The notes below the pieces were generated by a model. It did not search any database. It had not been told where the DNA came from and saw only the letters and a program-made list of their open reading frames with translations. From positions 1 to 38,847 of the forward strand of contig NZ_JAAHBQ010000034.1 of assembly GCF_020144665.1 (NCBI RefSeq): a stretch of 38,847 nucleotides of DNA, given 5' to 3'. Source of the DNA: Oscillatoria salina IIICB1 (GTDB taxonomy: Bacteria > Cyanobacteriota > Cyanobacteriia > Cyanobacteriales > SIO1D9). Shown here piece by piece: positions 29,338 to 38,551 of this stretch. A program made the position numbers and the translations under genes. Numbering within the stretch: position 1 is the first letter of the stretch; the number at the start of each line of letters is the position of its first letter.

Positions 29338-29347
29338 ATTGTTTCCC

Positions 29348-29668
29348 GTTTCCATTAATTCAACTTCCGAAGAAGTCGTAAGGGCGATACGAAGAGACCA
29401 AAAGAAAAGGAAGGGTCTTGTTTCCATTAATTCAACTTCCGAAGAAGTCGTAAGGCTTTGCCTTCTGGAAATTTGTGGTGAAATACTGGGCGTTTCCATT
29501 AATTCAACTTCCGAAGAAGTCGTAAGCCGAGAAATTTTATCCAATGGTTCAAAAGCCGCAATTGTTTCCATTAATTCAACTTCCGAAGAAGTCGTAAGCG
29601 AAATTATATCAGGTTGTAAATGGTGCCGAACAAGTTTCCATTAATTCAACTTCCGAAGAAGTCGTAAG
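29348..29668 (-). CRISPR. CRISPR array, 5 identical 35-bp repeats and 4 spacers
   Basis: Identical 35-bp repeats lie at 29348-29382, 29420-29454, 29492-29526, 29564-29598 and 29634-29668. Each begins GTTTCCATTAATTCAACTTC and ends CGAAGAAGTCGTAAG on the plus strand, with an internal ACTTC-CGAA-GAAGT hairpin. Spacers are 37, 37, 37 and 35 bp and unrelated to each other. Read on the minus strand the repeat ends ATGGAAAC, like the 5' handle of many type I and III crRNAs, so transcription is inferred from right to left with the leader at the right. No degenerate end repeat is seen. No cas gene is in the window, so effectors would have to act in trans. The 72-bp period creates spurious open frames on both strands. 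Confidence 0.95.
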
Positions 29669-31192: not shown

Positions 31193-34100
31193 TCACCAGG
31201 GATTCCCGATCGAGGTGAAAGCACTCCAGTAGTAAGGATGGGATAAATCGCGACTGTTTTCCTTTTCTACCTCTGAATCTAAGGGAAATTCTCGTTTGCT
31301 AGTCACGAGATTTCCAGTTTCCAAACGCACTCTCCCGTCCAACATCGCCAATTGTGCTTGTCGTAGCGCTTCTAATTTAGTCGGCGTATCTCGAAGTTGC
31401 TGGTAAAATTCTGACATCAACGCTAGCGTACCAATGTCATTGATATACCACAAACTTGCCACTACTGACTTCACTCCTGCTTGCACCGCCGAACCCGCAA
31501 AACCTAACTCTACTTCGTTGTTACCAAGGGCTGTCCGACAAGCAGAAAGCACTAATAATTCTACTTGAGGATTGTCCCAATCTAAAGAACGCAACTGAGA
31601 AATAGACAACTTACGATCTGCTAGCTGAATGTAAGAATTACTCGGTTTACCAGGAAGAAATTCCGCATGGGTAGCAAAATGAACAATTCCAAAAGGATTT
31701 GTCTGTTGTTGTAACTTGAGGTTTTCCAGGGTAAAATCATCATTGAGGAAAATTTTTCCAGGCCAAATGCGGCTAATTGTCGATAACTCAGTTTCAACTG
31801 CGGGTAAAGGAGCTAACTCTTCAAACTCACTTGCTCCCATAGCTAGTACCTGATAGCGATCGAGATCGGTTTGGCGAGTATCGGTAAGGCTCAAACTGGG
31901 CATTATACCGACACTGTAGCGTTGAATGATATATTCCTGACCATCGTGAAGCGCAGCTAAGGGAAGGGTACGCAAGCCAACATCAGGAATATAAATTAAA
32001 CTCTCAATTTGTAAACGTTGTAAATCAGCTTCAATAGGTGCAACCAGCCATTGATACATTTTTTGTGCTGGAGCCAAATTAGGACTGTGGCGAACATTGA
32101 CGATAGTTTGGTAAAATTCCAGCGCTGTTTGCCTTACTTCCGCTCTAGTGACATTAACAGATTTGCGTAGCAAAGTACCATTACCAGTAATTACTATGAG
32201 TTCCAGGCGATCGCTAGCTTGCGGTGAATGTGAGTAACGCGATCCTCCCAATTCAACTAAACTCGAAGATTTAGCTGCTTCACTTTCCTGAGAAGCCGAA
32301 TCTTGGGATAAACTGGTAGGAACAAATACTGCATAAATTATTGCTGGCTTAATGCCTGTAGTTGCTTCCGACTGACGTAAAATATTACTCGCTTGCGTAA
32401 GATTGAGCGAGGGAACAACTTCTACTTGCAGATATTCCGTATACTCCCGATTGAATGAGTTTTCTAATTTTTCTACTGCTAGATTACTTGCTCGTGTTTG
32501 AGAATATACTTGAGTCGGATTAGGATCGGAAGTAATTTCGGATTCGGATTCTGATTCGGATTCACTGACTTCTACTGACGACTCAGAGTTATTTGGTTGT
32601 GTAGAAGTATCTTGTCCAGTAGTTTGATTTTCTAAAGCTAGTGGATTTAACACTTCAGTAACGGGATGGGGAAAATCAGACGCGATCGCCTCAGACTCAG
32701 ACTCCTCAGCTACTACCTCACTCTCATTATCCTCTTCCTCGTCCTCCTCATCCTCCTCTGATGGTTGAGTAGGATTTTCACCTACTGGATCTGTCGGTTG
32801 AGTGGGATTTTCAGCCACTGGGTCTGTCGGTTGAGTGGGTTCCTCTACTTCGGGGTTGGTCGGTTGAGTGGGATTTTCAGCCACTGGGTCTGTCGGTTGA
32901 GTGGGTTCCTCTACTTCGGGGTTGGTCGGTTGAGTGGGATTTTCAGCCACTGGGTCTGTCGGTTGAGTGGGTTCCTCTACTTCGGGGTTGGTCGGTTGAG
33001 TGGGATTTTCAGCCACTGGGTCTGTCGGTTGAGTGGGTTCCTCTGTTTCGGGATCTGTCGGTTGAGTGGGTTCCTCTACTTCGGGGTCTGTCGGTTGTGT
33101 GGGATTTTCAGCCACTGGGTCTGTCGGTTGAGTGGGTTCCTCTACTTCGGGGTTAGTCGGTTGAGTGGGATTTTCAGCCACTGGGTCTGTCGGTTGAGTG
33201 GGTTCCTCTGTTTCGGGGTTAGTCGGTTGAGTGGGATTTTCAGCCACTGGATCTGTCGGTTGTGTGGGTTCCTCTGTTTCGGGATCTGTCGGTTGTGTGG
33301 GTTCCTCTGTTTCGGGGTTAGTCGGTTGAGTGGGATTTTCACCTACTGGATCTGTCGGTTGAGTGGGTTCCTCTGTTTCGGGATCTGTCGGTTGAGTGGG
33401 ATTTTCACCTACTGGATCTGTCGGCTGAGTGGGTTCCTCTATTTCGGGGTTGGTCGGTTGAGTGGGTTCCTCTATTTCGGGGTTGGTCGGTTGAGTGGGT
33501 TCCTCTGTTTCGGGATCTGTCGGTTGAGTGGGTTCCTCTGTTTCGGGATCTGTCGGTTGTGTGGGATTTTCAGCCACTGGGTCGGTCGGCTGAGTGGGTT
33601 CCTCTATTTCGGGGTTGGTCGGTTGAGTGGGTTCCTCTGTTTCGGGATCTGTCGGCTGAGTTGGTTCGGTAGGTATAGGCGGTTCAAATGACCTATTTAA
33701 CAAGCTAATAATACCGTTGCTACCAGGATTGAGTTCGCCTGTAATAATTTCATCTCTATTGTTTGCTAACAAGGTAATATCTGCACCTTCTTTAGCATTA
33801 CCAAAAGTAGTGTCTATATCACCAACTGTAATGTTTGCTCCTTCGATGGTTATTGGGATGCCACGAGTTCTAATATTATTATTCGGATCGAGATAATAAT
33901 TCCCAATTCCATCACGGTCTGCATCTGCTGTAAAGGTAATTGAAATAGTATCTTTATTTTTAAAGTCTAAGTTAGTATTATTAATTTCAATAGTTATGTT
34001 GTTTGTTGCTTCTATAATAATATTGCCGATTTGATTTTCAAGTTTATCTGCATCGATGCTTATATCTTCTGAGTAAAAATCCTCTTGAAAGATGCTTGAC

Positions 34101-35464
34101 AAAGTTAAAATTAATGTGGGAGAATTAGATTTTCTGGTAATGAAAACATTTTGGGGATCGAGTAGTAAGGTTCCTGGAATTCCGTTACTAGCACTAACAT
34201 CAACTGTGCCATTAAAATTTAAGTTTTCTCTACCTGAAATTTCAACAAAGCCACCATTGCCACTATCTCTACCACCTCTAGCAGTCAGATTACCTTGAAA
34301 ACTAGTTAGTTCGTCAGCCCAGATAATTACTCTACCACCATTACCATTGAGTAAGGCATCGGCGGCGATCGCGCTATCTTCACTGACAAAGGTTCTGACA
34401 GCGTTAGGAATTTCTCCATTTCCTTTGTAATCTCCGCCAATACGAATGTTTCCACCACCGTAGAAGCTGGATGCTGCGATATCGGCACTTACTACACCGA
34501 CGCGATCGCCGATGATATTGATATTACCTCCAATGCGATCGCTCCTCAGTGTTGAGCTATTTATTCTTCCGGAAACGATCGTGTCTCCTGGTTTTGGCGC
34601 TACACTTGCTTGGGAACGATTTAATTGGATTTCTCCTGTGGCTGAAACTCTTATTCCTGTTGCTAAATTTTCTGTTCCTCCTGTGAGTAAAGTTGGTAAG
34701 TCTAAGGGTTTTATGGGTAAGGGTTGTCCGCGATCGTCGGTAGGGATTTCAATTTCTAAACTTAGTAAGTTTCCTGCTTGACTAATTCTTACTAAACTTG
34801 TCCCTGGTACGGCTGCGATCGTAATGTTTCCTCCGGGGGCGTTTAATTGTCCAGTGTTGATGACGCTACCGCCGACTAAGGTAAGGTTTTTTCCTTCTAA
34901 AACTGATAAATTACCCGCATTAACAATACTTCCTGGTTCAATTACATCAAAGGCAAATTGACTGGGATTGCCGACTAAATCTTGGTAGTTATTTGTCCCA
35001 ATTACATCAAACCAATTATTATCGTTGAAGCCGACTCCGGTAGCAGTTGTAGCGGTAAAGTCTCCTGGTACGTTTAAACTTGCACCAGAACCAAAAATAA
35101 TTCCTGCGGGGTTAATTAAATATAAGTTCGCATTACTTCCTGTTAATTGAATTAAGCCATTAATCAGTGATGGATCGCCACCAACAACTCTTCCCAGAAC
35201 ATTGCGAATTTCTGGTTGGGCAAGAAAATTAGCAATTTGTTCGGACGAAAGCCCAAATTGCTCGAAACTGTGAAATAAATTTCCTCCATCGCTGGATAAG
35301 GAACCGCCTGTAATTTCAAAGCGGTTGCCATCGATCGTGACAATTGTCCCTGTCCCATCGTCAGCAGGTTCGATTCTTTCGGCTAAAGCAGAAGTGCTAC
35401 TGATTAGGTGAGAAAAGAAGATTATTGTCAACCATTGCATTAGCTTGGCGACGGAGAGTTTCAT
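31193..35464 (-). CDS. secreted haemagglutinin-like protein with Pro/Thr repeat stalk and C-terminal CHAT protease domain
   Basis: A 1423-residue protein. Residues 1-29 are a signal peptide ending STSALAE. About 30-400 is a filamentous-haemagglutinin N-terminal (two-partner secretion) beta-helix with INPAGIIFGSGASLNVPGDF. About 400-600 continues as beta-rich repeats. About 600-897 is 27 tandem copies of an 11-residue unit, PTQP(T)(D/N)PxxE(E/N), followed by an acidic run (EEDEEDEEED). About 1150-1423 is a CHAT caspase-like domain with the dyad His1266 (VHFATHAEF) and Cys1309 (LVLSACRTALG), and a closing PYYWSAFTSIGNPW typical of the family. It is predicted to cross the outer membrane via a TpsB (FhaC/ShlB) partner, not present here, and display or release a protease. 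Fusions of this kind occur in cyanobacteria but no function is established. Secretion and activity are inferred. Confidence 0.9.
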   Translation of the reverse strand: MKLSVAKLMQWLTIIFFSHLISSTSALAERIEPADDGTGTIVTIDGNRFEITGGSLSSDGGNLFHSFEQFGLSSEQIANFLAQPEIRNVLGRVVGGDPSLINGLIQLTGSNANLYLINPAGIIFGSGASLNVPGDFTATTATGVGFNDNNWFDVIGTNNYQDLVGNPSQFAFDVIEPGSIVNAGNLSVLEGKNLTLVGGSVINTGQLNAPGGNITIAAVPGTSLVRISQAGNLLSLEIEIPTDDRGQPLPIKPLDLPTLLTGGTENLATGIRVSATGEIQLNRSQASVAPKPGDTIVSGRINSSTLRSDRIGGNINIIGDRVGVVSADIAASSFYGGGNIRIGGDYKGNGEIPNAVRTFVSEDSAIAADALLNGNGGRVIIWADELTSFQGNLTARGGRDSGNGGFVEISGRENLNFNGTVDVSASNGIPGTLLLDPQNVFITRKSNSPTLILTLSSIFQEDFYSEDISIDADKLENQIGNIIIEATNNITIEINNTNLDFKNKDTISITFTADADRDGIGNYYLDPNNNIRTRGIPITIEGANITVGDIDTTFGNAKEGADITLLANNRDEIITGELNPGSNGIISLLNRSFEPPIPTEPTQPTDPETEEPTQPTNPEIEEPTQPTDPVAENPTQPTDPETEEPTQPTDPETEEPTQPTNPEIEEPTQPTNPEIEEPTQPTDPVGENPTQPTDPETEEPTQPTDPVGENPTQPTNPETEEPTQPTDPETEEPTQPTDPVAENPTQPTNPETEEPTQPTDPVAENPTQPTNPEVEEPTQPTDPVAENPTQPTDPEVEEPTQPTDPETEEPTQPTDPVAENPTQPTNPEVEEPTQPTDPVAENPTQPTNPEVEEPTQPTDPVAENPTQPTNPEVEEPTQPTDPVAENPTQPTDPVGENPTQPSEEDEEDEEEDNESEVVAEESESEAIASDFPHPVTEVLNPLALENQTTGQDTSTQPNNSESSVEVSESESESESEITSDPNPTQVYSQTRASNLAVEKLENSFNREYTEYLQVEVVPSLNLTQASNILRQSEATTGIKPAIIYAVFVPTSLSQDSASQESEAAKSSSLVELGGSRYSHSPQASDRLELIVITGNGTLLRKSVNVTRAEVRQTALEFYQTIVNVRHSPNLAPAQKMYQWLVAPIEADLQRLQIESLIYIPDVGLRTLPLAALHDGQEYIIQRYSVGIMPSLSLTDTRQTDLDRYQVLAMGASEFEELAPLPAVETELSTISRIWPGKIFLNDDFTLENLKLQQQTNPFGIVHFATHAEFLPGKPSNSYIQLADRKLSISQLRSLDWDNPQVELLVLSACRTALGNNEVELGFAGSAVQAGVKSVVASLWYINDIGTLALMSEFYQQLRDTPTKLEALRQAQLAMLDGRVRLETGNLVTSKREFPLDSEVEKENSRDLSHPYYWSAFTSIGNPW
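32763..33667 (-). repeat. 33-bp tandem repeats coding the PTQPTDPxxEE stalk
   Basis: Twenty-seven full 33-bp units plus a partial one lie within the CHAT-protein gene. Three main unit types differ at the variable positions (ETEE, E[IV]EE, V[AG]EN, with D or N before the Pro). The C-terminal-side units (genome 32790-33050) alternate VAEN and EVEE as near-perfect 66-bp dimers, evidence of recent duplication by slippage or unequal crossing-over. The opposite strand is also open over this stretch because of the repeat period; that frame is not considered a gene. Confidence 0.95.
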
Positions 35465-35782: not shown

Positions 35783-37135
35783 CTATAATTGCTTTCGTTC
35801 TCTCTGCAAAAAATGGGTGATTTTAGCTACAATCCACTCTTGCTCTACTTTAGTTAAAGTTGAACCAAAACAGTGTTTTTTGTCTCCTTCCCAGAGAGCA
35901 AGGGTAGCTTGATTATTTTTTGAGTTAGCGTCGATTTCTCTTTCAACTTGTTGTAAATAGAGAGTTTTACCTCGATAGGTAGAAAATTTCCAACCAAATA
36001 AGATTCTTTGCAGAGAAAAAGAATCTAAGTTAATTTCCAAACGGGTTTTACCAGCGATCGCCCAGAAGAATCCCGCCCACATTAGTAAGCCAATGATACC
36101 TAATGGGCTGGTAAGTAACAAAATTGCGATCGCGGAAACAAATTGTCCGGATACTAAGGCTGCTAGAGAAAATACTAAGGGAAAACCTAAAAATGAACCA
36201 AAAACAGGTAATACGATAATCCCGGTTTTCCATCCCGTCGGAGGAATATCTAAGCGTAAATCTCCATTTGTTTCTTTCACCACTACACGACTACCCATCG
36301 GTTGTTTAATCTGGAGTTGGCGCAGTTGCAATTTGCTTAATCTCGCTAAGGCTTTACCCGCAGATGGAAAGCGATCTTCTACCGCAGGTTCGAGCATTTT
36401 TTCCAACCAATCAGCAAATTCAGATGAAATTTGGACTCGCGAACGAAAGTCAATTTTTAACCTTTTTGCAGGTAACTCTTCGGGATTTCTATGAGTTAGT
36501 AAAAATAATAAAGTAGCTCCTAATCCATACAAATCTGAAGCCCAAAAAGCAACTCCTTGAAATTGTTCTGGAGCCATATAACCAATAGTCCCGACAAATG
36601 TACTGCCTTTAATTAAGGTATTGCGATAAACATCTTGTACTGCACCAAAATCAACTAAAAATATCTTGCCGTCGCTTTGGCGAATAATATTTTGTGGCTT
36701 AATATCTCGGTGAATGACTGGTGGCGTCCAAGAATGCAAATATTTCAGGATTTTTAGCACTTGTTTGGCAATATTTTTGACTTCTTCTTCGTTAGCGTGC
36801 CATCCTTTTTGGACTAAATCAGCTAAGGATTCACCAGCTACTAATTCTTGGACTAAATAAAAGCGCCGATCTTCTGGTGTGTCGATATGGAAGTAGTCGA
36901 GATATTGGGGAATATTTGGGTGATTCAGATTAGCTAAAACTTTCGCTTCTCGTTCAAATAGTTCTAACATTTTCCAGTTAGTTGCTGCCCGTAATGAGAG
37001 AATTTTTATTGCTACTCGTTTATAATTAGTTAAGTCTTCGGCTTCGTAGGTTGTACCAAATGCTCCTTCACCTAAAGGCGCAACCAAACGATATCTTCCC
37101 GCAATAATATTTTCTGTTTTCTTTAAAGTTTCCAT
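35783..37135 (-). CDS. membrane-anchored Ser/Thr protein kinase (Hanks type), copy 1
   Basis: A 450-residue kinase from ATG 37135; a TTG at 37144 is less likely because the paralogue begins with the same METL. The catalytic domain (about 14-275) is complete: glycine loop GEGAFGTTYEAE, Lys44 in VAIKIL, HRDIKPQN at about 142, DFGA at about 162, APEQF and a distal conserved Arg. After a basic linker come two or three hydrophobic segments (about 310-370). A C-terminal beta-rich domain follows, with TRLEINLDSFSLQ and ALWEGDKKHCFG ... LTKVEQEWIVAKITHFL. It is predicted to phosphorylate cytoplasmic targets at the membrane. It is a tandem paralogue of the next gene, which lies upstream on the same strand and may share its promoter. 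Confidence 0.92.
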   Translation of the reverse strand: METLKKTENIIAGRYRLVAPLGEGAFGTTYEAEDLTNYKRVAIKILSLRAATNWKMLELFEREAKVLANLNHPNIPQYLDYFHIDTPEDRRFYLVQELVAGESLADLVQKGWHANEEEVKNIAKQVLKILKYLHSWTPPVIHRDIKPQNIIRQSDGKIFLVDFGAVQDVYRNTLIKGSTFVGTIGYMAPEQFQGVAFWASDLYGLGATLLFLLTHRNPEELPAKRLKIDFRSRVQISSEFADWLEKMLEPAVEDRFPSAGKALARLSKLQLRQLQIKQPMGSRVVVKETNGDLRLDIPPTGWKTGIIVLPVFGSFLGFPLVFSLAALVSGQFVSAIAILLLTSPLGIIGLLMWAGFFWAIAGKTRLEINLDSFSLQRILFGWKFSTYRGKTLYLQQVEREIDANSKNNQATLALWEGDKKHCFGSTLTKVEQEWIVAKITHFLQRERKQL

Positions 37136-37194
37136 AGTTCTCAATTAATAATTAATGATTAATAACTAGCTAATTTTTTTCCTACTCTCTACCT

Positions 37195-37232
37195 TCCCAA
37201 TCCCCAATCCCCAATCCCCAGTCCCCAATCCC
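37195..37232 (-). repeat. heptanucleotide repeats (GGGGATT) directly after the kinase 2 stop codon
   Basis: On the minus strand the kinase 2 stop codon TAG runs straight into about five units of GGGGATT or GGGGACT. They belong to the same family as 4032-4282, and again the G-rich strand is the coding strand of the preceding gene. Confidence 0.85.
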
Positions 37233-38551
37233 TATATTTGCTGTAAAAAATTAGTGATTTGTGCGGCTAACCAATTCATCTCTTCTTGTCGGAGATTGTT
37301 GTAATTAAATCCTCTTTGACGCACTCCTTCCCAGATAATAAAACGAGAATCTTCTACTTCAATTTGACAAATATCGGCAGTTCGTCCTTTTTGTTCGCGA
37401 ATAGATATATTTCCTAATCGCCATTGTAAGCGAAATTTGTGTCTATCAATTTCTAAATGTCTGCTACCAGCACTTGACCATAATGCTTCTGGTAATGGTA
37501 GTAAACAGCCAGCTATAATCCAAATTGGTAGCAAATATGTCCAAGAAATTCCCGCAGCAGCAAGGTAAGAGTTAATTAACCATAAAAAGCCGTTTAGTAA
37601 TAACAACACAATGACGGTAATTATCCATCCTGAATGTAAGGGATTGATGTCGGCAACTAATTTTTTGTTGGTTCTATTTAAAGTGATGCGACTGTTAATT
37701 GGTGGTTGAAGTTCCTGGGTTGGGGATGGTGGTATTCTTTGGTTGCTTTGTAAGGTTTTTAAGGCGAGTTTGGCGGAGGAAAAACGATCTTCTAAGGTGG
37801 GTTCGAGCATTTTTTCTAGCCAGTCGCCAAATTGATTGGATATTTTTACTTGGGAGCGAAATTCGATTTTCAGACGCTTTTTTTCGAGTTCGCCTGGATT
37901 ATTCCCAGTTAGTAAAAATATTAGGGTACTTCCTAAACTGTATAAGTCTGATGCTGGTACGACTGTGCCGCGAAATTGCTCTGGAGATATATAGCCGAAG
38001 CTGCCGACAAATGTACCACCGCGAGTAAGGGTGTTGCGGTAAATGTCTTGTACTGCTCCGAAATCGACTAAGAAGATTTTACCGTCGCTTTGGCGAATTA
38101 GGTTTTGTGGTTTGATGTCTCGATGCAAAACTGGTGGTGTGAGAGTGTGGAGGTAGTCTAAGATTGATAAAATTTGGATGGCGATGCGCTTGACTTCGGC
38201 TTCGTCGGGATGCCAACCTTTAGCTATTAAGTCGGCTAAGGATTCTCCGGTTGCTAATTCTTGGACTAGGTAGATTTGGCGATCGCTGCCTGTATATGCT
38301 TCAAAATAATCTAGGTATTTGGGTATATTAGGATGGTTGAGGTTGGCGAGAATTTTCGCTTCTCGTTCAAATAATTCTAATGTTTTCCAGTCTCGGATCT
38401 GATTTACTGTTAAGGCTTTTAATGCTATCCGTCGATAGTTGCTTAAGTCTTCTGCTTCGTAGGTGGTTCCTGCTGAACCTGTCCCTAGAGGGGTGACTAT
38501 TCGATACCTCTGGGCAATAATTTCTTCTGGTCGATGCTGTAGGGTTTCCAT
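37232..38551 (-). CDS. membrane-anchored Ser/Thr protein kinase (Hanks type), copy 2
   Basis: A 439-residue kinase closely related to its neighbour. The catalytic elements are all present: GTGSAGTTYEAE, Lys45 (IALKAL), Glu64, His143-Arg144-Asp145 (HRDIKPQN), Asp163-Phe164-Gly165. The APE motif reads SPE. Two hydrophobic segments (about 300-345) are followed by the same C-terminal domain as copy 1 (RHLEIDRHKFRLQW, then FIIWEGVRQRGFN and MNWLAAQITNFLQ). The shared C-terminal domain suggests a common partner or signal, and divergence between the copies is greatest in the linker. It is probably the first gene of a two-kinase transcription unit. The upstream 296 bp to the window end carry no gene that I can see. 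Confidence 0.93.
   Translation of the reverse strand: METLQHRPEEIIAQRYRIVTPLGTGSAGTTYEAEDLSNYRRIALKALTVNQIRDWKTLELFEREAKILANLNHPNIPKYLDYFEAYTGSDRQIYLVQELATGESLADLIAKGWHPDEAEVKRIAIQILSILDYLHTLTPPVLHRDIKPQNLIRQSDGKIFLVDFGAVQDIYRNTLTRGGTFVGSFGYISPEQFRGTVVPASDLYSLGSTLIFLLTGNNPGELEKKRLKIEFRSQVKISNQFGDWLEKMLEPTLEDRFSSAKLALKTLQSNQRIPPSPTQELQPPINSRITLNRTNKKLVADINPLHSGWIITVIVLLLLNGFLWLINSYLAAAGISWTYLLPIWIIAGCLLPLPEALWSSAGSRHLEIDRHKFRLQWRLGNISIREQKGRTADICQIEVEDSRFIIWEGVRQRGFNYNNLRQEEMNWLAAQITNFLQQI

What the first reader, a model, noticed from the sequence alone, without database searches (positions are those of the whole stretch)
31193..35464. Two-partner-secreted haemagglutinin fused to a CHAT caspase-like protease through a 300-residue repeat stalk
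Seen: a signal peptide, a TPS/FHA N-terminal domain, 27 copies of PTQPTDPxxEE, an acidic stretch and a CHAT domain with His1266 and Cys1309 in one frame. Known: CHAT proteases are mostly cytoplasmic (separase/caspase relatives, some in immune systems), and TPS exoproteins are exported unfolded through TpsB pores. A CHAT domain that crosses the outer membrane on a beta-helix stick would be a surface or released protease that may need maturation outside the cell. The Pro/Thr stalk may act as a spacer or attach to cell wall or slime. Neither substrate nor role is known.
Basis: partly seen in the sequence, partly recalled or inferred. Interest (0 to 1): 0.72.

Follow-up and report, generated by a model that had tools for sequence, protein, structure and literature searches.

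The report
Secreted adhesin with built-in separase-like protease
Many cyanobacteria encode long rod-shaped proteins for export across the outer membrane whose tail, where related proteins carry a small two-cysteine segment that looks like an anchor, is a separase-like protease, which suggests surface fibres that may control their own release.

Summary
The frame is real (minus strand, 31193-35464, 1423 aa): signal peptide, TPS domain and beta-helix, 27 Pro/Thr 11-mers, an acidic linker, and a complete separase/Csx29-like CHAT module (aa 983-1423) with H1266 and C1309. It is not a one-off. TPS-CHAT fusions form a large cyanobacterial family, four of them in this genome. The dyad is kept in 64 of 64 fused proteins examined; in 40 of 64 the catalytic Cys is the only Cys after the signal peptide.

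New here: the cyanobacterial TPS exoproteins examined carry one of two C-terminal modules, never both: a Cys-pair segment resembling the HMW1/HxuA/CdrA anchor (35 closed frames) or CHAT (71). The CHAT type has its own TPS clade and its own TpsB clade, and this genome has one TpsB of that clade (contig 54), the likely transporter. Anchor-type exoproteins often lie beside a separate TPR-CHAT gene. LapG was not found in 40 relatives.

Best reading: CHAT replaces the anchor as a built-in plug and release protease, CdrA/LapG logic on a separase fold. That step is inferred.

The parts
31193..35464 (-). whole gene, TPS-beta-helix-stalk-CHAT exoprotein, 1423 aa
35381..35464 (-). signal peptide, aa 1-28
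   Evidence: sequence read by eye; not run through a predictor
33665..35386 (-). TPS domain and beta-helix, aa 27-600
   Evidence: Pfam TPS aa 38-247; AlphaFold2 pLDDT 88.6, pTM 0.89; Foldseek EtpA, HMW1, HxuA, FHA secretion domains
32756..33664 (-). stalk, aa 601-903: 27 complete 11-residue units and a partial one; no Lys or Arg, net charge -78
   Evidence: DNA repeat
32519..32755 (-). acidic low-complexity linker, aa 904-982
31193..32518 (-). separase/Csx29-like CHAT module, aa 983-1423, with stop codon
   Evidence: AlphaFold2 pLDDT 92.5, pTM 0.92; Foldseek and VIA-align
31667..31669 (-). codon of His1266, dyad
   Evidence: coordinates computed from the residue number
31538..31540 (-). codon of Cys1309, dyad, only Cys of the protein
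   Evidence: coordinates computed from the residue number

Best explanation
It is a two-partner-secretion exoprotein of a cyanobacterial family in which a separase-like CHAT cysteine-protease module stands in the place of a C-terminal Cys-pair anchor. Proposed working: Sec exports the precursor; the TPS domain engages a dedicated TpsB (here most likely the one on contig 54); the beta-helix folds outside; the disordered stalk threads the pore; the CHAT module folds at the periplasmic mouth and holds the fibre; when activated it cuts the fibre free, so anchor and release protease are one domain in cis. Relatives keep the two apart: an exoprotein with the Cys-pair segment and a separate TPR-CHAT protein from a neighbouring gene. 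Shown: architecture, family, dyad conservation, one-module-or-the-other pattern, lineage-specific TpsB, gene linkage. Inferred: transporter pairing, protease activity, periplasmic position, release.
For: Either-or C-terminus: of 110 closed TPS frames 71 have CHAT, 35 the Cys-pair segment, 0 both, 4 neither (three N-masked, one of 268 aa) (at least one gene, L058/L161, is counted twice). In this genome the segment profile hits the six non-fused TPS frames and none of the four fused. Cys parity: 27 of 27 non-fused even, 60 of 64 fused odd. Dyad H and C in 64 of 64 fused frames. Fused TPS domains form one group, SH-aLRT 100. The 11 TpsB rows (10 different) beside CHAT-type genes lie in one 16-row clade (99/100) that holds no TpsB lying beside a non-fused TPS. 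Fused-type CHAT and CHAT-type TpsB: both in 130, CHAT only 19, TpsB only 1, neither 45 of 195 genomes. TPR-CHAT gene on the same strand close to 5 of 6 non-fused TPS frames here, and somewhere in 10 of 20 loci of relatives. LapG family 0 of 40 relatives. Precedent: disulfide anchor in HMW1/HxuA, and LapG cutting the hook of CdrA (passages of PMC5422565; of PMC8472254).
Against: No experiment. That the cyanobacterial Cys pair is a disulfide anchor is itself inferred. Nothing shows that CHAT stays in the periplasm; gingipains, which share the fold, are secreted proteases (recall), and LepA shows that TPS can carry a protease (PMC5422565 passage). 19 of 149 genomes with fused-type CHAT lack a strong CHAT-type TpsB; one of them, G114, has several long CHAT frames. 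9 of 20 relative loci with a non-fused TPS have no CHAT gene nearby, and TpsB lies in only 4 of the 80 named loci. In the CHAT tree the fused group as a whole is not resolved (support 0 on its branch).
Confidence: 0.42

Rival explanations
1. Protease on a stick: the CHAT module is fully exported and acts at the surface or in the medium on sheath, slime, neighbours or attackers; the stalk is a spacer.
For: Sec signal, TPS domain and TpsB present; almost no Cys except the catalytic one; TPS can carry a protease (LepA, PMC5422565 passage); gingipains share the fold.
Against: Does not explain why CHAT and the Cys-pair segment exclude each other or why relatives have TPR-CHAT as a separate gene beside TPS genes; the module would have to cross the pore unfolded and refold.
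Confidence: 0.3
2. Arrested effector: the CHAT module is held back in the periplasm like the FhaB prodomain or the CdiA toxin part and is delivered on contact with another cell or a predator.
For: Many paralogues per genome with a variable middle (199-3141 aa, 24.5% mean identity); the FhaB prodomain is kept in the periplasm (PMC8263021 passages).
Against: The CHAT module is conserved (50% mean identity), not diversified as CdiA toxin ends are (recall); no immunity gene or PADLOC match was found for the protein (immunity genes were not searched for systematically).
Confidence: 0.12
3. The CHAT module is a plain structural plug or binding domain without protease activity.
For: It occupies the place of the anchor, and a folded module of about 440 residues could by itself stop translocation (inference).
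Against: His and Cys kept in 64 of 64 fused frames, the Cys in chains otherwise almost free of Cys.
Confidence: 0.07

Closest known systems
TPS (type Vb) adhesins with a C-terminal disulfide anchor: HMW1, HxuA, CdrA
   Same: TPS domain and beta-helix; Foldseek finds the HMW1 and HxuA secretion domains; TpsB in the genome.
   Different: No C-terminal Cys pair; a CHAT module stands there instead.
CdrA/LapG release system of Pseudomonas
   Same: Proposed logic: periplasmic cysteine protease controls release of a TPS adhesin (PMC5422565 and PMC8472254 passages).
   Different: The protease has a separase-like fold, is fused to the exoprotein, and the LapG family was not found in 40 relatives.
Csx29/TPR-CHAT of Craspase and eukaryotic separase
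   Same: Fold of the module: Z 27.1 over 329 residues at 3.1 A (7y84_C) and Z 24.2 over 315 at 3.5 A (5fby_A); His-Cys dyad.
   Different: No TPR or CRISPR partner in this protein; Sec and TPS export signals; sequence identity about 14-16%.
LepA of Pseudomonas aeruginosa
   Same: A protease carried by a TPS exoprotein (listed in PMC5422565, passage).
   Different: Another protease type (serine, recall).
FhaB of Bordetella
   Same: TPS exoprotein with a C-terminal part kept in the periplasm until processed (PMC8263021 passages).
   Different: There the processing proteases (DegP, CtpA, SphB1) are separate proteins; here the protease-like part belongs to the chain.

Membership tests
TPS / type Vb exoprotein | N-terminal TPS secretion domain | tested here: met
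   Pfam TPS 150.5 bits against a cut-off of 33.5
TPS / type Vb exoprotein | Sec signal peptide | tested here: inconclusive
   typical by eye; no predictor was available
TPS / type Vb exoprotein | beta-helical passenger | tested here: met
   model of aa 27-600 and Foldseek matches
TPS / type Vb exoprotein | TpsB partner in the genome | tested here: met
   5 ShlB hits, one in the clade of CHAT-type transporters; pairing itself not tested
TPS / type Vb exoprotein | export across the outer membrane | not testable with these tools
   needs fractionation
CHAT / separase-like clan CD protease | CHAT domain and separase-like fold | tested here: met
   Pfam 240.2 bits
CHAT / separase-like clan CD protease | His-Cys dyad | tested here: met
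   H1266, C1309; 64 of 64 fused frames
CHAT / separase-like clan CD protease | proteolytic activity | not testable with these tools
   needs an assay
Disulfide-anchored TPS adhesin (HMW1/HxuA/CdrA type) | C-terminal Cys pair | tested here: not met
   single Cys, the catalytic one; segment profile matches 0 of 64 fused frames at E 0.01
FhaB/CdiA type arrested exoprotein | periplasmic retention of the C-terminal part | not testable with these tools
   needs accessibility tests
Known anti-phage defence proteins (PADLOC) | match to a PADLOC model | tested here: not met
   0 families for P0001 at E 0.01; the contig-51 TPR-CHAT protein had weak matches (TPR 7e-8, BovA 1.8e-5)

The most novel reading that the evidence does not exclude
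A self-releasing secretion class: the exoprotein's own separase-like domain is both the plug that holds the fibre in a dedicated TpsB pore and the protease that frees it, a one-polypeptide replacement of the anchor plus LapG pair, widespread in cyanobacteria, with a two-gene sister version (Cys-pair exoprotein plus TPR-CHAT).
Probability: 0.33. Interest if true: 0.85.

Novelty: new variant of a known kind. Interest (0 to 1): 0.7.

Why it matters
[quoted passage not shown] Here a separase-type protease is tied to TPS in cis, or as a nearby gene, in many cyanobacteria. If it controls tethering and release, it gives a testable handle on how filamentous and mat-forming cyanobacteria attach and shed, and a role outside the cytoplasm for CHAT proteins, of which this genome has 29 hits.

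Tried and rejected
Lys/Arg-free stalk as protection from a basic-specific protease: striking in the window (399 residues), but in 62 fused proteins the longest such run ends within 60 residues of the CHAT module in only 12, so it is no family rule. Cleavage specificity: not claimed; PMC9729208 (passages) says that the separase residue for P1 Arg is not kept in TPR-CHAT, and I had no coordinates to map it here.

Immune role: no PADLOC match for P0001. The two upstream kinases match PD-T4-6 models, which I read as generic kinase similarity.

Conserved surroundings of the fused gene: the most widespread neighbour cluster (29 of 80 named loci) is a single-linkage cluster whose printed example is a protein kinase; TpsB lies in 4 of 80. 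Co-transcription with the upstream kinases is unsupported: 318 bases between, one promoter-like match (1.3 expected) and one terminator-like match (0.5 expected).

PDB by sequence: the whole protein matches TPS structures only; the CHAT alignment found nothing convincing (best E 0.03). Only the fold search showed the separase/Csx29 relation.

Literature: ten searches. The five that paired 'CHAT domain' with hemagglutinin/haemagglutinin or two-partner-secretion terms returned no paper. The library lacks most subscription journals, so this is weak evidence of novelty. The six terms sought in the Anabaena exoproteome paper PMC4390845 were absent from its main text.

Limits. The segment profile was trained on 27 of the 35 frames it hits; 6 further non-fused frames (L162, three in L167, two in L168) and 2 TPS-TpsB frames are independent; L172 (268 aa) was missed. 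The cut-offs for fused-type CHAT (1e-85) and CHAT-type TpsB (1e-170) were set after seeing the gaps (nearest values 2.8e-155 and 2.4e-172). Genomes are related, so the Fisher values overstate. Most TpsB neighbours were fetched because they lie close, so they give no linkage rate. A1 counts CHAT domains of the fused type whether or not a TPS domain is in the same frame. Signal peptides were judged by eye; a crude hydrophobicity test passed 48 of 64 fused frames.
Full report
What is there. The frame lies on the minus strand, 31193-35464, 1423 residues. Pfam gives TPS at 38-247 and CHAT at 1131-1421. Between them lie a beta-helix, a stalk of 27 11-residue units (aa 601-897, partial unit to 903, no Lys or Arg, net charge -78) and an acidic linker. 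His1266 and Cys1309 are as stated; Cys1309 is the only cysteine.

Structures. AlphaFold2 on 82 aligned sequences gave aa 983-1423 at pLDDT 92.5, pTM 0.92. Foldseek's best match is Csx29 of Craspase (E 4.2e-15). VIA-align, a second look at Foldseek's matches, gives Csx29 Z 27.1 over 329 residues at 3.1 A, separase Z 24.2 over 315 at 3.5 A, gingipains about 18 and caspases about 13. The module is therefore a whole separase-type protease unit, larger than the Pfam match. Aa 27-600 gave a beta-helix (pLDDT 88.6, pTM 0.89) matching secretion domains of EtpA, HMW1, HxuA and FHA.

It is a family. This genome has three more single-frame fusions, of 3822, 3600 and 3576 aa (TPS in the first). Of these 80, 52 are closed TPS-CHAT frames, 18 have a frame that is open at or starts near the contig edge (rule; L062 among them looks like a short form), and 10 show CHAT alone. 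Of those ten, three are interrupted by masked bases (L083, L094, L122), two are broken or partial (L125, L129), and five are short proteins (L070, L080, L095, L126, L132). In 195 genomes of the order 149 have a CHAT domain of this type at E 1e-85 or better (counted); in a phylum sample 64 of 291. Fused proteins measured from the TPS start run from 849 to 3795 residues, median 1579 (64 frames). Over 62 of the 64 (two with masked residues dropped) mean identity is 59% for TPS, 50% for the CHAT module (421-473 aa) and 24.5% for the middle (199-3141 aa).

Active site and cysteines. The dyad columns read H and C in 64 of 64 fused, 15 of 15 cut and 28 of 29 CHAT-only frames; the exception is L051, with Q and C. 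From the TPS start on, fused proteins hold 124 Cys in 118,932 residues, 64 of them catalytic, against 84 in 7,262 for 14 other genes of the window. Forty of 64 have only the catalytic Cys and 60 of 64 an odd number; of the 24 with more than one, 20 are odd and 21 have a close pair.

The other C-terminus. Closed TPS frames without CHAT, from this genome and 20 loci of relatives, have an even number of Cys in 27 of 27, exactly two in 25. The last two Cys lie at the C-terminus (median spacing 97, last one a median of 3 residues from the end) in a segment in which 4 columns are invariant over the 22 rows aligned, two of them the Cys. In HMW1 and HxuA a disulfide-bearing C-terminal anchor locks the exoprotein in its transporter with the C-terminus in the periplasm (PMC5422565, passages); CdrA has such a hook, which LapG cuts off (PMC8472254, passages; PMC7616799, passages, names a cysteine hook). 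I take the cyanobacterial pair as the same kind of anchor; that is inference. Of 110 closed TPS frames 71 have CHAT, 35 this segment (two are TPS-TpsB single frames), 0 both and 4 neither: three N-masked and one of 268 aa (L058 and L161 are the same gene). In this genome the profile hits the six non-fused TPS frames and none of the four fused; it is found in 34 of 40 relatives.

Lineages. In the TPS tree (100 rows) the 65 fused rows form one group (SH-aLRT 100) with five others whose frames are masked (L083, L094, L122) or run off the locus (L114, L131); the other 30 lie outside. In the CHAT tree the six operon CHATs and L099:11995-14646 form a group (92, long branch) that contains no fused row, but the fused group itself is unresolved. 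Fused, cut and short forms have a longer segment after the catalytic Cys than operon CHATs (median 114 against 88 residues; partial frames included). In the TpsB tree 11 rows (10 different) beside CHAT-type genes, 10 beside fused frames and one beside a short CHAT, fall in a 16-row clade (99/100) with no transporter from beside a non-fused TPS; one of the five TpsB of this genome is in it (C54:36862-38625, P0002), the other four are not. Across 195 genomes fused-type CHAT and CHAT-type TpsB are both present in 130, CHAT only 19, TpsB only 1, neither 45 (test). The 19 exceptions include three incomplete assemblies (G029, G065, G149, 61-71%) but also G114, 99% complete with several long CHAT frames. 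None of the 19 genomes without a ShlB hit at 1e-10 has a CHAT match at 1e-60; all 170 with one have ShlB. LapG: 0 of 40 relatives (the control search found it in Caulobacter).

Two-gene form. Five of the six non-fused TPS frames here have a TPR-CHAT gene on the same strand nearby (contigs 51, 38, 47, 8, 36), with TpsB between or fused in two (38, 36); contig 4 has none; contig 92 has TpsB and TPR-CHAT without TPS. N-termini look exported by eye. Of 20 loci of relatives chosen by a non-fused TPS, 10 hold a separate CHAT gene, one a fused gene, 9 neither. At the CHAT density of this genome about 8% would by chance (P 1e-6); at about twice that density P is 4e-4.

How it may work. Sec export and TpsB engagement follow from known TPS biology. 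The step I add, that CHAT stands in for the anchor and frees the fibre, rests on the either-or pattern, the transporter lineage, the two-gene form, the missing LapG and the intact dyad. A fully exported protease and an arrested effector are not excluded; sequence does not settle where the CHAT module ends up.

Known or new. Both domains are in public libraries, so the architecture is visible to databases; in the ten searches listed I saw no paper that describes it. It meets the testable TPS and CHAT features, fails the Cys-pair feature, and matches no PADLOC model. I file it as a new variant of two-partner secretion.

Noticed in passing
window 29339-29668: Five copies of a roughly 35-base repeat (GTTTCCATTAATTCAACTTCCGAAGAAGTCGTAAG) at 70-72 base spacing, like a small CRISPR array.
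   Followed up: partly
window 35783-38551: Two Ser/Thr protein kinase genes in a row upstream on the same strand as the fused gene, each with a C-terminal part outside the kinase domain.
   Followed up: partly
G000:C38 (L038:5201-10597) and G003:C72 (L135:9267-13619): TPS exoprotein and TpsB transporter in one reading frame, with the Cys-pair segment between them. TpsB hits in frames of 1450-1498 aa in G112, G129, G142 and G174 may be more of them; not checked.
   Followed up: partly
G000:C4 (L041:3766-8595): One exoprotein frame with two TPS domain hits in tandem.
   Followed up: no
L070, L080, L095, L126, L132 and frames of about 450-560 aa: Short freestanding CHAT proteins of the fused-type family with a hydrophobic N-terminus; L095 lies beside a CHAT-type TpsB.
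   Followed up: partly
window aa 593-988: A stretch of nearly 400 residues without Lys or Arg across stalk and linker.
   Followed up: yes
G000:C51 (L037:4054-5076): A DUF928 gene directly after the TPR-CHAT gene; similar small secreted-looking genes lie near other CHAT genes.
   Followed up: no
window 32765-33691, plus strand: A 308-aa open frame opposite the repeat stalk, most likely an artefact of the repeat.
   Followed up: no
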